From Mesorhizobium opportunistum WSM2075 (lineage in GTDB: Bacteria; Pseudomonadota; Alphaproteobacteria; Rhizobiales; Rhizobiaceae), in assembly GCF_000176035.2 (NCBI RefSeq), contig NC_015675.1:1178001-1242000 (forward strand): a DNA stretch of 64,000 nt, written 5' to 3'. Shown one piece after another: positions 12,164 through 43,413 of this stretch. Below the pieces are notes generated by a model, which saw nothing but the letters and a program-made list of their open reading frames with translations, made no database searches and was not told where the DNA came from. Within the stretch, counting starts at the first letter, position 1, and each line of letters starts with the position of its first letter. The position numbers and the translations under genes are program-made.

Positions 12164-13396
12164 ATGAACCTTGCGAAATGGACTGTCGGCCTGATGGCCG
12201 GAATGAGCATGCTGGCCTTCGCGGCGCAGGCGAATGCGGGTGAAGTACGGGTCACCGTTGCCGAATACAGCGCCAAGACCGGCCCCTATTTCGAGGAAGT
12301 GAAGAAGGAATTCGAAGCGAAGAATCCCGGCATCACCGTCAAGTTCGAAGTCGTGCCGTGGGATGTGCTGCTGCAGAAGCTGACCACCGACATCACCGCC
12401 GGCACAAATGCCGATCTGTCGATCATCGGCACGCGCTGGCTGATCGACTTTGTCCAGCAGGATGTCGCGGAGCCGCTCGATGGCTACATCACGCCCGAAT
12501 TCAAGGACCGCTTCATCGACACGTTCCTGTCGCCCTCGATCATGAACGGCAAGACCTACGGCCTGCCGATCGCCGCCTCGGCGCGCGCCATGTATTACAA
12601 CAAGGAACTGTTCGAGAAGGCCGGCATCGCCAAGCCGCCGGCAACCTGGACCGAGCTGCAGGAAGACGCCCGCAAGATCAAGGCGCTGGGGACCGGCGCC
12701 TTCGGGTTCGGCCTGCAGGGCAAGGAGATCGAGACGGACGTCTATTACTACTACGCGATGTGGTCGCAAGGCACCGAGATCCTCAACAAGGACGGCACGT
12801 CGGGCCTTGGCACGCCAGGCGCGCTCGAAGCCGCCAAGCTCTACAAGTCGATGATCGACGAGGGGCTGACCGAACCGGGCGTCACCTCCAACAACCGTGA
12901 GGACGTGCAGAACCTGTTCAAGCAGGGCAAGGTCGGCATGATGATCACCGCGCCCTTCCTATCCAACCAGATCAAGGACGAGGCACCGACGCTGAAATAC
13001 GGCGTCGCCGCCATTCCGGCCGGTCCGACCGGCGCACGCGGCACCTATGGCGTCACCGATTCCATGATCATGTTCAAGAACTCCAAGAACAAGGACGAGG
13101 CCTGGAAGCTGATGGACTTCCTGTTCACCACGGAGCAGCGCGCCAAGTTCACGCAAGGCGAGGGCTTCCTGCCGGTGAACAAGGAAGAGGCCAAGATGGA
13201 TTACTACGTCAACAACGCCGATCTGGCCGCCTTCACCGCGCTCCTGCCCGACGCCCGCTTCGCGCCGGTCATCCCGGGTTGGGAAGAAGTCGCCCAGATC
13301 ACGTCGGACGCCATGCAGAAGATCTATCTCGGCGGCGACCCCGAGGCAGGCCTGAAGGACGCGGCGGCGAAGGCCAATGCAGTGTTGAAGAAGTAG
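12164..13396 (+). CDS. Extracellular sugar-binding protein of ABC transporter
   Basis: 410 residues. A Sec signal peptide ends around residue 25 (MLAFAAQANA-GEVRV). The mature protein is a family-1 solute-binding protein: YFEEVKKEFEAKNPGITVKFE near the N-terminus, YGLPIAASARAMYYNKELFEKAG in the hinge region, and DAWKLMDF-like helix segments near the end. It starts behind GGGAGA and reads away from the SDR-ATPase-RpiR operon. Its permease genes begin only at 15051, because an IS110 element and palindromic repeats lie in between. An IS-borne promoter or read-through may be needed to express them. Confidence 0.92.
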   Translation: MNLAKWTVGLMAGMSMLAFAAQANAGEVRVTVAEYSAKTGPYFEEVKKEFEAKNPGITVKFEVVPWDVLLQKLTTDITAGTNADLSIIGTRWLIDFVQQDVAEPLDGYITPEFKDRFIDTFLSPSIMNGKTYGLPIAASARAMYYNKELFEKAGIAKPPATWTELQEDARKIKALGTGAFGFGLQGKEIETDVYYYYAMWSQGTEILNKDGTSGLGTPGALEAAKLYKSMIDEGLTEPGVTSNNREDVQNLFKQGKVGMMITAPFLSNQIKDEAPTLKYGVAAIPAGPTGARGTYGVTDSMIMFKNSKNKDEAWKLMDFLFTTEQRAKFTQGEGFLPVNKEEAKMDYYVNNADLAAFTALLPDARFAPVIPGWEEVAQITSDAMQKIYLGGDPEAGLKDAAAKANAVLKK

Positions 13397-13488: not shown

Positions 13489-13537
13489 TCAATCTTCAGC
13501 AGAAACAAAATCGTCTACGTCGGCGCCGCCCAGCCAG

Positions 13538-13710
13538 GCTCCTTTCCTCTCCCTCCGGAGGGGGAGAGGTGGCTCGGCGAAGCCGAGACGGAGTGGGGGA
13601 ACCACCTGGCAGCCGCCGCGAACGGATATAGGAAGAGCACCAGGCGCAAGCCTCGCATCGCCTTGCGCCCAGGGGTCGACCCCCACTCCGTCGAGCTTCG
13701 CTCGACACCT
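13538..13710. repeat. RIME-like element, left part, interrupted by IS110
   Basis: Two palindromic units. Unit A (about 13538-13605) contains CCTCTCCCTCCGGAGGGGGAGAGG and a CTCGGCGAAGCCGAG hairpin. Unit B begins at about 13672 (GTCGACCCCCACTCCGTC) with the hairpin GTCGAGCTTCGCTCGAC and stops abruptly at 13710. The rest of unit B resumes at 14860. The uninterrupted counterpart, with units in the other order, is at 43065-43240. Confidence 0.75.
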
Positions 13711-13903
13711 TGTATCTACACGAGAGCGATTTCGTGGGATTGAAGCGATTGAGCCAAGGTCCGGGCGGCCGCCCGGACCTTGGCTTGGCGAAGTCGCCCG
13801 TACCACCTGAGGTTACAGCCGCGGGAGAGCTTGGGATCTTCGCCTTCGTCACGCACGACCGAACAGTCGCTTGGTTCCAACCGTACGCACAAGGCAGGTT
13901 ACC
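13711..13903 (+). ncRNA. Predicted bridge RNA of the IS110 element
   Basis: The non-coding left end has the layout expected of an IS110 bridge RNA. A perfect 34-base palindrome (13752-13785) forms a 5' stem-loop. A target loop follows: CCACCT (13803-13808) copies the left side of the target, and GGGAGAG (13823-13829) is the reverse complement of CTCTCCC on its right. A donor loop follows: ACAGTCGCTTG (13863-13873) copies the element's right end plus core and first bases of the left end, and ACAAG (13889-13893) complements CTTGT at the left end. The left target guide has one mismatch to the occupied site (ACACCT). Transcript ends are not known. Confidence 0.7.
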
Positions 13904-14842
13904 GTGAACAAGATCATTTGTGGAGTTGATGTTTCGAAGGATTGGCTGGACGCGCATGTCTGGCCAGGCGGTGCGGCAGAGCGTTTCGCCAATGACGCGA
14001 CGGGCATCGCAGCTCTTTGGCTGTTCTGCCGTGGCCACGGCGCAGCAATGGCGGTGATGGAGGCGTCGGGCGGCTATGAGAGGCTGGGGTTCATGCTTTT
14101 GTGGGCGCATGGCATGCCGTGCGGCGTGGTCAATGCCAAGAGCGTGCGTCGCTTCGCCGAGGCGATGGGTTATCTGGAAAAGACCGACCGGATCGACGCT
14201 GCTGTCATCGCCCATTACAGCGAAGTCAAGAAGACGGTCCCCACGCCACCGCCGAGCGCTGCCCAGCAGCGGCTCGCCGCACTGGTTGCGCGGCTTTGCC
14301 AGGTTGTCGGCGATGCGACCATCAACAAGCAGCGCAGAAGTGCCGCACGCGACGCCGAGACATGCGCCAGCATCGAGGCCATGCTGGCCTTCCTCAAGCG
14401 CGAGCAACGACGGCTGGAAGGCGAGATTGCCTCGATGATCGACGACGATCCGCTGTGGGCCAGGCTGGAGCGGGCCTTCCGTTCGCTCAAGGGGGTGGCC
14501 GGGCGCACCGTCGCCCGCCTGATGGCCGAACTGCCTGAGATCGGCCTCATCTCCAACAAAGCCATCGCTAAGCTGGCAGGCCTCGCCCCCATCGCAGATG
14601 ACAGCGGCAGGCGGGCCGGCAACAGGCATGTGCGCGGCGGACGCGCCGGGCCGCGAGGCATCCTCTTCATCGTCGCGGCCATCGTGGCCAAGTTCGATCC
14701 CCATCTCAAAGCGTTCGCTCAGCGGTTGCAACAGGCCGGAAAGTCCAAAATGCTCATCCGCATCGCACTCGCCCGAAAACTCCTCGTCATCCTCAATGCA
14801 AAAGCACGCGATGCGCGAGCCGAGTTCGCAAATGCAACTTGA
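13904..14842 (+). CDS. IS110-family transposase (DEDD recombinase)
   Basis: 312 residues from GTG 13904. The N-terminal RuvC-like DEDD domain shows ICGVDVSKDWLDAHVW (first Asp), AVMEASGGYERLG (Glu) and KTDRIDAAVIAHY (the Asp pair). The C-terminal Transposase_20 domain shows LKGVAGRTVARLMAELPEIG and AKLAGLAPIADDSGRRAGNR with the likely catalytic Ser, then GGRAGPRGILFIVA. Length and motifs are complete, so the element may still be active. IS110 transposases act with a bridge RNA encoded in the same element. Confidence 0.93.
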   Translation: MNKIICGVDVSKDWLDAHVWPGGAAERFANDATGIAALWLFCRGHGAAMAVMEASGGYERLGFMLLWAHGMPCGVVNAKSVRRFAEAMGYLEKTDRIDAAVIAHYSEVKKTVPTPPPSAAQQRLAALVARLCQVVGDATINKQRRSAARDAETCASIEAMLAFLKREQRRLEGEIASMIDDDPLWARLERAFRSLKGVAGRTVARLMAELPEIGLISNKAIAKLAGLAPIADDSGRRAGNRHVRGGRAGPRGILFIVAAIVAKFDPHLKAFAQRLQQAGKSKMLIRIALARKLLVILNAKARDARAEFANAT

Positions 14843-14859
14843 CACCCCAGACAGTCGCT

Positions 14860-14892
14860 CTCCCCCGGTCGACGGGGGAGAGGAAGGGCTCC
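14860..14892. repeat. RIME-like element, right part after IS110
   Basis: CTCCCCCGGTCGACGGGGGAGAGGAAGG is the remaining half of unit B of the interrupted palindrome and directly follows the right core CT of the IS. The further 160 bases to the permease start contain no gene and no clear promoter. Confidence 0.7.
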
Positions 14893-15050
14893 CTTCCGCA
14901 ACTGCTGCGGAGGACGGGCAGGCAAGTGAGGACGGCGCTTACGGTTGTAAGCAATCCTGAAGCGGTGTCCTGAAAAGAACGAGGCCGGACCAACTCAATC
15001 TGTTAAGCAGCGAAATCCAATCTCCCCGCAACGCGGTACAAAGCCAGCCG

Positions 15051-15920
15051 ATGCAAAATCGCTTCCTGCCCTACCTCCTGACCTTGCCCAGCCTGTTCCT
15101 GGCGGCGGTCGTCATCTTCTGGCCGGTCTGGGATTTGATCCAGATCTCGACGCATGACGTCAGCCGCTTTGGCCAGTTGCGCGATTTCTCGGGCCTGACC
15201 AATTTTGCCGCGCTCACCGCCGATCCCGATTTCATCGCCGCGCTCTGGCGCACGGGGCTGTGGACCGTGCTGGTGGTTGGCGGGGCGCTGTTGCTGTCGG
15301 TTCCGGTGGCGATGATCCTCAATACCGATTTCTATGGCCGCGGCATTGCCCGCGTCATCATCATGCTGCCCTGGGCGGTATCGCTGACCATGACGGCGGT
15401 CGTCTGGCGCTGGGCGCTGAGCGGTGAAAGCGGCATGCTGAATTCGGCGCTGATCGGGCTGGGCCTGATCGACCACAACATCCAGTGGCTGGCGCAGGCC
15501 GAGACCGCCTTTCCGATGCAGGTGCTGATCGGCATACTGGTGACGGTGCCGTTCACCACGACGATCTTCCTCGGCGGCCTGTCGTCGATCCCCGACGATC
15601 TCTACGAGGCGGCGGCGCTGGAAGGGGCGACACCGCTGCAGCAGTTCCGCGAGATCACCTTTCCGCTGTTGAAGCCGTTCATCAACATCGCCATCGTGCT
15701 CAACACGATCTATGTCTTCAACTCGTTCCCGATCATCTGGGTGATGACGCAAGGTGGGCCGGCGAACTCGACCGATATCCTGGTCACCCACCTCTACAAG
15801 CTCGCCTTCCGCATCGGCAAGCTGGGCGAGGCCTCCGCCGTGTCGCTGGTGATGTTCGCCATATTGCTCATCTTCACCATGATCTATGTGCGGCTGGCGA
15901 TGCGGGAGCAGCGCGCATGA
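15051..15920 (+). CDS. Sugar-type ABC transporter permease (MalF class)
   Basis: 289 residues with six predicted membrane helices. The first is [19 protein letters not shown]. The cytoplasmic EAA loop, [26 protein letters not shown], couples the permease to the ATPase. ATG 15051 begins the domain but has no strong ribosome site, perhaps because the native upstream region has been displaced by the RIME and IS110 insertion. Its stop overlaps the next permease start by four bases. Confidence 0.92.
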
Positions 15921-16741
15921 CAAGTAAACTCAAACGCACCGTCATCGCATGGCTGCTGCTGGCGCCCTTGATCGTGGTGACGATCTTTCCCTTCGCGGTG
16001 ATGTTCCTGACCGCGGTCAAGCCGCGGCAGGAGGTGCTGTCGCCGACATGGTGGCCGAGCGAGTTCCGCTGGTCGAATTTCTCCGACATGTGGGTAGCCA
16101 CCGGCTTCGGTCAGGCGCTGGCCAATTCGCTCTACGTCTCGGTCATCGCCACGGTCGGCGCGATCCTGATCTCGGTGCCTGCGGCCTATGCCATGTCGCG
16201 CTTCCGCTTTGCCGGTTACGGCGCCTTCCGTCAGTTCCTGCTGATCTCGCAGATGATCTCGCCGATCGTACTGGTGCTCGGCCTGTTCCGGCTGATGGCC
16301 GCCTGGGGGCTGGTCGAATCGACGACGGCGCTGGGCTTCATCTACATGGCCTTCAACGTCGCCTTCACCGTGTGGATGCTGCAGAGCTATTTCGACACCA
16401 TTCCGCGCGATCTCGAGGAAGCCGCCTGGATGGAGGGTGCCGGCCGCTGGCTGACGCTGCGAAAAGTGTTCCTGCCGCTCTGCCTGCCGGCAATCGCGGT
16501 GACAGCGATCTTCACCTTCATCAACGCCTGGAATGAGTTCGTCGTCGCGCTCACCATGCTGCGCAGCCAGGAAAGCTATACGCTGCCGATCCAGGTGTTC
16601 TCGCTGGTCGCCGGCCGCTACACGATCGAGTGGCATCACGTCATGGCCGCGACGCTGCTGGCGACGCTGCCGGTGGCGATCCTGTTCATCTGGCTGCAGC
16701 GCTACCTGGTTCGGGGTTTGGCGCTCGGGGCCGTCAAATAG
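15917..16741 (+). CDS. Sugar-type ABC transporter permease (MalG class)
   Basis: 274 residues, six predicted membrane helices. It starts at ATG 15917, overlapping the stop of the first permease (ATGA). The EAA loop reads [25 protein letters not shown], and the segment [16 protein letters not shown] is typical of MalG-type subunits. With the first permease it forms the membrane channel for the binding protein (12164-13396) and the ATPase (10137-11213). The open frame extends far upstream but only as an overlap with the first permease. Confidence 0.92.
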
Positions 16742-43064: not shown

Positions 43065-43240
43065 TCGACCCCCACTCCGTCTCGGCTTCGCCGAGCCACC
43101 TCTCCCCCGATCGACGGGGCAGAGGAAAGGCGCCAGGCTCTTTGCCGTCAACGCGCGTCCAGCAACGCTCCTTTCCTTTCCCTCCGGAGGGGGGAAAGGT
43201 GGCGCTGCGAAGCAGCGACGGATTGGGGGAACCACGTGGC
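43065..43240. repeat. Intact RIME-like element with two palindromic units
   Basis: Unit B (GTCGACCCCCACTCCGTC, then a TCGGCTTCGCCGA hairpin and CACCTCTCCCCC) is followed by unit A (CCTTTCCCTCCGGAGGGGGG, GCTGCGAAGCAGC hairpin, GGGGGAACCAC). CCACCTCTCCC at 43096-43106 is an unoccupied match to the IS110 target site. The element takes up most of the 400-base gap between the glutamate dehydrogenase and MFS genes; the rest shows no gene. Confidence 0.8.
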
Positions 43241-43413
43241 AATCAAGCCTCGGCCGATCAGTCACGCTAATCACACAAGATGTGCGCACAGCGTAGCTTT
43301 CGTGGGGTACGGAACCCAGGAGCAATGAACGGCAGCTGGACGCTTGTCATTTGCGCGGTCATGAAAAACATGCAGACATGGCGCCCGACACGGGCGCGGC
43401 CGGGGGAATCATC

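What the first reader, a model, noticed from the sequence alone, without database searches (positions are those of the whole stretch)
13709..14859. IS110 element whose bridge-RNA guides can be read against both its target and its own ends
Seen: the left end (13711-13903) contains CCACCT and, 14 bases later, GGGAGAG, which together describe CCAC-CT-CTCCC, the palindrome sequence the element split. Further on it contains ACAGTCGCTTG, equal to the element's right end plus CT plus TG of its left end, and ACAAG, the complement of CTTGT at the left end. The order is stem-loop, target loop, donor loop. Known: IS110/IS621 elements use such a bridge RNA with a CT core. Inference: this copy encodes a programmable RNA-guided recombinase aimed at RIME palindromes. 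The occupied site has one mismatch (ACACCT).
Basis: partly seen in the sequence, partly recalled or inferred. Interest (0 to 1): 0.85.

Follow-up and report, generated by a model that had tools for sequence, protein, structure and literature searches.

The report
Jumping gene guided by bridge RNA
This is a small bacterial jumping gene whose own RNA appears to match both its landing site, a repeated palindrome scattered through the genome, and its own ends; it is an unusually legible new member of the recently described bridge-RNA (IS110) kind, not a new kind.

Summary
The element (13711-14859, 1149 bp; CT cores 13709-13710 and 14858-14859) has seven near-identical copies in its genome, all at the same point of one palindromic repeat: six at CCAC-CT-CTCCC, the window copy at ACAC-CT-CTCCC. 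One relative has a gap-free empty junction at the window locus that already carries that mismatch. The bridge-RNA reading passes an independent test: relatives with six different right-target guides sit at correspondingly different sites (192 of 195 bases match, 145.8 expected from shuffling; 39 of 48 sites scorable). A junction promoter (TTGAC[A/C]-17-TATCT) is kept in 28 of 28 distinct left ends with both ends readable. The RNA structure has strong covariation in the 5' stem-loop and some in the target-loop stem, none in the donor-loop closing stems. All five IS621 catalytic residues align. So this is an IS110-group bridge-RNA element, in Mesorhizobium by inference: a new member of a known kind. 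RNA expression and recombination are inferred; 'RIME' is untested. Two odd details, both unproven: the donor-loop stem contains the transposase start codon, and a 5' leader, not seen in IS621, carries a conserved complement of the donor guide.

The parts
13680..13708 (+). Left part of the split palindromic repeat; target positions 1-7 TCGACAC at 13702-13708
13709..13710 (+). Left CT core
13711..14859 (+). IS110-group element, 1149 bp, counted with one core
   Evidence: seven copies in the genome
13713..13718 (+). TATCTA, -10-like half of the circle-junction promoter (inferred)
   Evidence: 17 bases from the -35 when the ends are joined, 28 of 28 left ends
13725..13905 (+). Predicted bridge RNA; both ends inferred from promoter spacing and from IS621 numbering
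13725..13751 (+). 5' leader with AAGCGATTG (13743-13751), complementary to the donor guide
13752..13785 (+). 5' stem-loop, a perfect 34-base inverted repeat
   Evidence: covariation, helix 1, 12 of 14 pairs
13800..13808 (+). Left target guide GTACCACCT (CCACCT matches the usual target)
13823..13829 (+). Right target guide GGGAGAG (complement of CT-CTCCC)
13830..13830 (+). Putative handshake base C facing donor position 7 (G)
   Evidence: by homology with IS621 position 81
13849..13907 (+). Donor loop closed by UCACG/CGUGA and GACC/GGUU; the outer stem holds the GTG start
   Evidence: no compensatory change in these nine pairs
13863..13871 (+). Left donor guide ACAGTCGCT (equals right end plus core)
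13889..13893 (+). Right donor guide ACAAG (complement of CT-TGT)
13894..13894 (+). Putative handshake base G facing target position 7 (C)
   Evidence: by homology with IS621 position 166; target C at 47 of 48 sites
13904..14842 (+). Recombinase gene, GTG start, 312 aa, stop TGA 14840-14842
14839..14844 (+). TTGACA, -35-like half of the junction promoter, overlapping the stop codon
14858..14859 (+). Right CT core
14860..14885 (+). Right part of the split palindromic repeat, beginning CTCCCCC (approximate end)

Best explanation
A recently mobile IS110-group insertion sequence of Mesorhizobium. It leaves as a circle, joining right and left ends into a promoter (inferred) that transcribes a bridge RNA of about 181 nt from the left end (inferred). 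The RNA's first loop pairs with the palindrome (left guide with the bottom strand of CCAC-CT, right guide with the top strand of CT-CTCCC); its second loop pairs with the joined ends (AGTCG-CT-TGT). The recombinase then exchanges strands at the shared CT, as worked out for IS621. Shown here: the guides, their match to all seven genomic copies, covariation of target guides with targets in relatives, conserved RNA structure and catalytic residues. Not shown: transcription, the circle, recombination.
For: 7 of 7 copies at one palindrome junction. Right guide against flank 192 of 195 bases, 37 of 39 sites exact over five bases; one element per guide pair 54 of 55 (0 of 20,000 shuffles); one per right guide 29 of 30 (56 of 20,000). 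Left guide 188 of 273 against 145.8 shuffled. Junction promoter in 28 of 28 left ends. Structure: 96.9% of cells paired, 89 cells changed on both sides against 22.0 shuffled. IS110 domains and NCBIfam cut-off passed; D11, E60, D102, D105 and S241 of IS621 align with D9, E53, D95, D98 and S234. Empty site in a relative. Guides named for IS621 are found at the expected places in L168, which calibrates the reading.
Against: No RNA, circle or recombination data. Left-guide positions 1-3 match poorly (20, 9 and 17 of 39). The donor guides hardly vary, and the search patterns required conserved donor motifs, so the donor pairing is not a covariation test; the base before AGTCG differs between guide and end in 10 of 37 rows. 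L060 has an unrelated right flank. The model built here does not find the IS621 RNA under default filters. The lone-strand fold pairs the leader with the donor guide instead of forming an open donor loop. Only one of three loci examined gave a clean empty site.
Confidence: 0.93

Rival explanations
1. Target choice is made by the protein reading the palindrome's sequence or hairpin; the guide-like matches reflect shared ancestry.
For: All seven own copies are in one kind of palindrome, and many relatives of one clade also sit beside palindromic repeats (by eye). Shuffling does not correct for relatedness.
Against: The match survives with one element per guide pair and one per right guide. Near-identical left ends with different right guides (L055 and L056) differ in the guide; both lie at CATTC, exact for L056 and one base off for L055. 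Several targets differ (CTCCC, CATCC, CATTC, CACCC, CACCT, CCGTC), each the complement of its guide.
Confidence: 0.04
2. A bridge-RNA element of this kind, but now inactive here: a set of fossil copies.
For: No expression or mobility data; the match to the target at the window copy is imperfect.
Against: Seven open frames at 99-100% identity, guides unchanged and catalytic residues in place; the imperfect target base is already in the empty site of a relative.
Confidence: 0.1
3. The conserved AAGCGA in the leader is a DNA-level subterminal inverted repeat of the right end, not an RNA lock.
For: It is the reverse complement of the right end plus left-end base (TCGCTT); own and cross leader/donor-loop pairings do not differ (-20.0 against -19.2 kcal/mol, 13 representatives).
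Against: In the window RNA the lone-strand fold uses it; in six of 13 representatives it pairs with the donor loop better than nearly all shuffled leaders.
Confidence: 0.5

Closest known systems
IS621, IS110 group, E. coli (PMC11208160, PMC11208158)
   Same: CT core, guide order and positions, handshake bases, junction promoter with 17-base spacing, left end about as long (195 against 193 bases from core to start codon), palindromic target, catalytic residues.
   Different: 30% protein identity (94 of 308); different target and guides; seven-base right target guide fully paired where IS621 pairs four; a leader of about 27 nt before the 5' stem-loop; start codon inside the donor-loop stem; the RNA is too diverged for model R1 to find IS621 by default.
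Other alphaproteobacterial IS110 elements (Mesorhizobium, Rhizobium, Bradyrhizobium, Sphingobium, Inquilinus)
   Same: Same left-end layout, donor ends and RNA structure.
   Different: Different target guides and sites; protein identity from about 96% down to 55%.
ISCro4 transposase (solved structure 9t56)
   Same: Sequence relative with a solved structure, E 5e-24.
   Different: Only the listing was seen; no ends or RNA compared.
TIGR-Tas (NF052498)
   Same: Weak model match, 24.9 bits.
   Different: Far below that model's cut-off of 100 bits; the IS110 model passes its own cut-off.

Membership tests
IS110 family, IS110 group | DEDD RuvC-like and Tnp domains with catalytic serine | tested here: met
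   PF01548 and PF02371 above cut-off; NF033542 163.8 against 140 bits; five catalytic residues aligned with IS621
IS110 family, IS110 group | Left non-coding end longer than the right, holding the bridge RNA | tested here: met
   Left end 193 bases, right end 15 bases between stop and core; guide-bearing structure in the left end
IS110 family, IS110 group | Two loops with guides for target and donor | tested here: met
   Target guides covary with targets; donor guides match the own ends but hardly vary
IS110 family, IS110 group | CT core at both ends | tested here: met
   the patterns used for relatives required it
IS110 family, IS110 group | Circular intermediate with a junction promoter | tested here: inconclusive
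   Promoter-like sequence conserved across the joined ends in 28 of 28; no circle observed
IS110 family, IS110 group | Expressed small RNA bound by the recombinase | not testable with these tools
   No RNA or binding data available
IS621 type bridge RNA by covariance model | A model of these RNAs finds the IS621 RNA | tested here: not met
   No match in L168 or L169 up to E 10 with default filters; with filters off, two weak pieces (8.5 and 7.4 bits) in the right order
IS1111 group | Bridge RNA in the right end and a right end longer than the left | tested here: not met
   Right end is 15 bases
TIGR-Tas | NCBIfam model NF052498 at its cut-off | tested here: not met
   24.9 against 100 bits
Target as a RIME element | Sequence identity with a published RIME | not tested
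   No RIME sequence seen; the repeat family itself has 71 matches

The most novel reading that the evidence does not exclude
In this alphaproteobacterial lineage the bridge RNA regulates itself: its 5' leader is a built-in copy of the donor's bottom strand (AAGCGAYTG) that closes the donor guide until real donor DNA displaces it, and the donor-loop stem buries the transposase start codon, so that one transcript serves either as guide or as message.
Probability: 0.12. Interest if true: 0.65.

Novelty: new member of a known kind. Interest (0 to 1): 0.42.

Why it matters
The lineage gives a compact natural series in which related recombinases carry different target guides and sit at correspondingly different sites, which is what natural retargeting by guide change predicts and can be read without experiments. 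It offers a recombinase about 30% identical to IS621, with seven-base right target guides paired throughout, as a further candidate for programmable recombination. That both proposed handshake bases are satisfied in so distant a member is modest support for that part of the IS621 mechanism.

Tried and rejected
Rfam scan of 13500-15000 at E <= 5: ten matches, none reaching its family's gathering score and none a bridge-RNA family. Promoter scan of the integrated sequence 13600-14900: no promoter-like site, as expected if the promoter forms only when the ends are joined, though the scan is strict and is no proof. The pairing of CTTGT with ACAAG (columns 1-5 with 189-193) was rejected as an RNA stem, because the left end lies upstream of the predicted RNA start; it is the donor pairing. 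A weak model hit at window 43147-43286 (11.8 bits, E 0.12) overlaps the palindromic repeat and was taken as chance.

Leader lock: own pairings average -20.0 kcal/mol against -19.2 for cross pairings (13 of the 20 aligned left ends used as representatives), so no covariation support. Against letter-shuffled leaders 0-3 of 300 were as low in six of 13, 9-28 in three, 96-297 in four. The leader also pairs with the target loop, in seven of 13 about as well or better (window -21.2 against -23.7; G117 -20.5 against -15.7; G1242, Inquil, Sphing, G249 and G260 likewise).

Empty sites: for the window locus five relatives were compared of 12 listed loci; L127 is clean, L130 aligns across with many missing bases and was not read further, L128, L129 and L131 do not align across the junction. 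For the L004 locus seven relatives were compared: in six the flanks meet within about 20 bases, so the repeat itself is missing; L171 has about 105 other bases there. For the L007 locus seven were compared: L182 aligns across with 98 gap positions, 72% identity and a changed core base; L180 only through a repeat in the opposite orientation; five not at all.

Rows dropped: 9 of 48. L062, L065, L088, L095 and L098 had no readable right end. L057, L058, L063 and L108 were missed or misread by the pattern; by eye, L057, L063 and L108 (guides GGATGAG, GGGTGAG, GGATGAG) match their flanks CATCC, CACCC, CATCC, and L058 (GGATTAG, CATCC) has one mismatch. L006 was merged with L005 (same flanks and RNA), so the own genome gives six rows. 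The pattern required conserved donor motifs (CTTGTAT, ACAAGGCAGGTT, AGTCGCT).

Literature: the listings showed no paper whose title or abstract start describes this element or guide series; most subscription papers are not in that library. Searches gave no RIME sequence.

Full report
The place. The window is 1178001-1242000 of a 6.88-Mb single-contig genome. Its genus is inferred to be Mesorhizobium: the left end and printed flanks of L078, from G008 (listed as same genus), equal those of L053, M. ciceri WSM1271.

The observation.

Copies and target. There are seven copies at about 100% identity, with seven open frames (one copy 99% in protein). All seven lie at the same junction of one palindromic repeat: six read CCAC-CT-CTCCC, the window copy ACAC-CT-CTCCC. 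A 71-base piece of a neighbouring repeat has 71 matches in the genome, many in inverted pairs and some cut by the element. The uninterrupted target 11-mer occurs 37 times, against 2 for the reversed control. In relative G024 the orthologous site is empty: the joined flanks align over 640 bases (546 of 650 columns identical, no gap at the junction), and it already reads ACACCTCTCCC, so the mismatch most likely predates the insertion. Two further loci gave no clean empty site (told under Tried and rejected).

Target guides covary with targets. Relatives came from 25 of 146 genomes of the genus, 7 of 397 of the order, 4 of 394 of the family and 4 of 385 of the class (own genome counted in each; in the last three only five candidates per genome were scored), and. 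From these 48 distinct combinations of flanks and RNA were read; 39 could be scored. Right guides fall in six classes: GGGAGAG with CTCCC, GGATGAG with CATCC, GAATGAG with CATTC, GGGTGAG with CACCC, AGGTGAG with CACCT, GACGGAG with CCGTC. 37 of 39 are exact over five bases; the exceptions are L055 (GGATGAG at CATTC, a possible G-T pair) and L060 (TTCTC). In all 192 of 195 bases match against a shuffled mean of 145.8, reached by 0 of 20,000 shuffles. With one element per guide pair (n = 11) it is 54 of 55, 0 of 20,000; with one per right guide (n = 6) 29 of 30, 56 of 20,000. Left guides match less fully: 188 of 273 against 145.8 shuffled (0 of 20,000); 49 of 77 with n = 11 (70 of 20,000); 28 of 42 with n = 6 (111 of 20,000). 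Per position 1-7 the left matches are 20, 9, 17, 29, 38, 36 and 39 of 39. Shuffling ignores relatedness, hence the collapsed counts.

Donor side. The left donor guide equals right end plus core and the right donor guide is the complement of the left end, in the window and nearly unchanged in relatives. As it hardly varies, and as the patterns required it, this is a match and not a covariation test. The C/T base before AGTCG agrees between guide and end in 27 of 37 rows and differs in 10.

Handshake bases. Passages of PMC11208158 describe bases next to the right guides that pair with position 7 of the other DNA. Here C13830 faces donor G7 and G13894 faces target C7. The first is C in 19 of 20 aligned left ends and T in one; target position 7 is C in 47 of 48 sites. 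In IS621 the corresponding donor pair is A with T, so both sides differ together, one event.

RNA structure. An alignment of 20 left ends extended into the gene (A2; 20 of the 28 distinct left ends) gives an RNAalifold structure of 45 pairs. 96.9% of cells pair; 89 cells are changed on both sides, against 22.0 in shuffles and 5-18 in slid controls. Twelve of 14 pairs of the 5' stem-loop and four of seven pairs of the two helices closing the target loop show such changes. The inner target-loop helices show none. Of the nine pairs closing the donor loop seven never vary and two vary on one side only, so that part is unproven. Folded alone, the window RNA is more stable than its shuffles (z -4.0; 1 of 200 as low), but its best fold pairs the leader with the donor guide. 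Calibration: the IS621 RNA folds into the three expected parts, and the guides numbered in PMC11208158 lie where expected in L168. Model R1 finds no IS621 RNA with default filters; with filters off the two best matches are pieces in the right order and strand, but weak (8.5 and 7.4 bits).

Promoter and gene. Joined ends give TTGACA (25 left ends) or TTGACC (three) 17 bases before TATCT in 28 of 28; in IS621, read by eye, TTGCAG-17-TATTAT holds that place. The -35 box overlaps the stop codon. The 312-aa protein has both IS110 Pfam domains, passes the IS110 NCBIfam cut-off, is 94 of 308 identical to IS621 and has its five catalytic residues (residues named).

Two details. First, the predicted donor-loop stem UCACG/CGUGA contains the GTG start codon, and by IS621 numbering the RNA would end at 13905; in IS621 it ends one base before the ATG. 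GTG follows the conserved ACAAGGCAGGTT-CC block in 29 of 29 distinct segments printed, though in one (L053) the frame is shifted just after it. Second, about 27 nt precede the 5' stem-loop, where the IS621 RNA pairs from its first bases. In this leader AAGCGA is kept in 18 or 19 of 20 at each position; two other leader positions (T and G) are kept in 19 of 20, the rest in 17 or fewer. It is complementary to the donor guide.

Papers. PMC11208160: abstract, outline, sections 5, 6, 12 and passages. PMC11208158: passages. PMC2573895: passages. Tobes and Pareja 2006 and Choi et al. 2003: reference lines only. All others: listings. The RIME sequence itself is recalled by nobody here and was not compared.

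Verdict. The finding is right and well supported; it is a new member of the IS110 bridge-RNA kind, whose mechanism was published in 2024. Its value lies in the clean natural guide series and in two untested regulatory details.

Noticed in passing
13725-13751: Leader before the 5' stem-loop with AAGCGA conserved in 18-19 of 20 left ends and complementary to the donor guide; not seen in IS621.
   Followed up: partly
13889-13907: The right donor guide, a possible ribosome-binding AAGG and the GTG start share one stretch, and the predicted donor-loop stem includes the start codon.
   Followed up: partly
12164-13396 and 15051-16741: The element sits between an open frame that looks like an ABC-transporter binding protein and permease-like frames on the same strand, within an intergenic repeat (gene identities by eye, no family search).
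   Followed up: no
L083, L084, L102, L103, L120, L121: A 74-75% identical group in other Mesorhizobium-genus genomes sits at CACCC-CT-CATCC, often at the edge of a different palindromic repeat.
   Followed up: partly
43069-43234: Another inverted pair of the target repeat in the window, with an uninterrupted target 11-mer at 43096-43106.
   Followed up: no
L168 306-333 and window 13752-13785: The apex of the 5' stem-loop carries GGCC in IS621 and in most of this lineage, in otherwise different stems.
   Followed up: no
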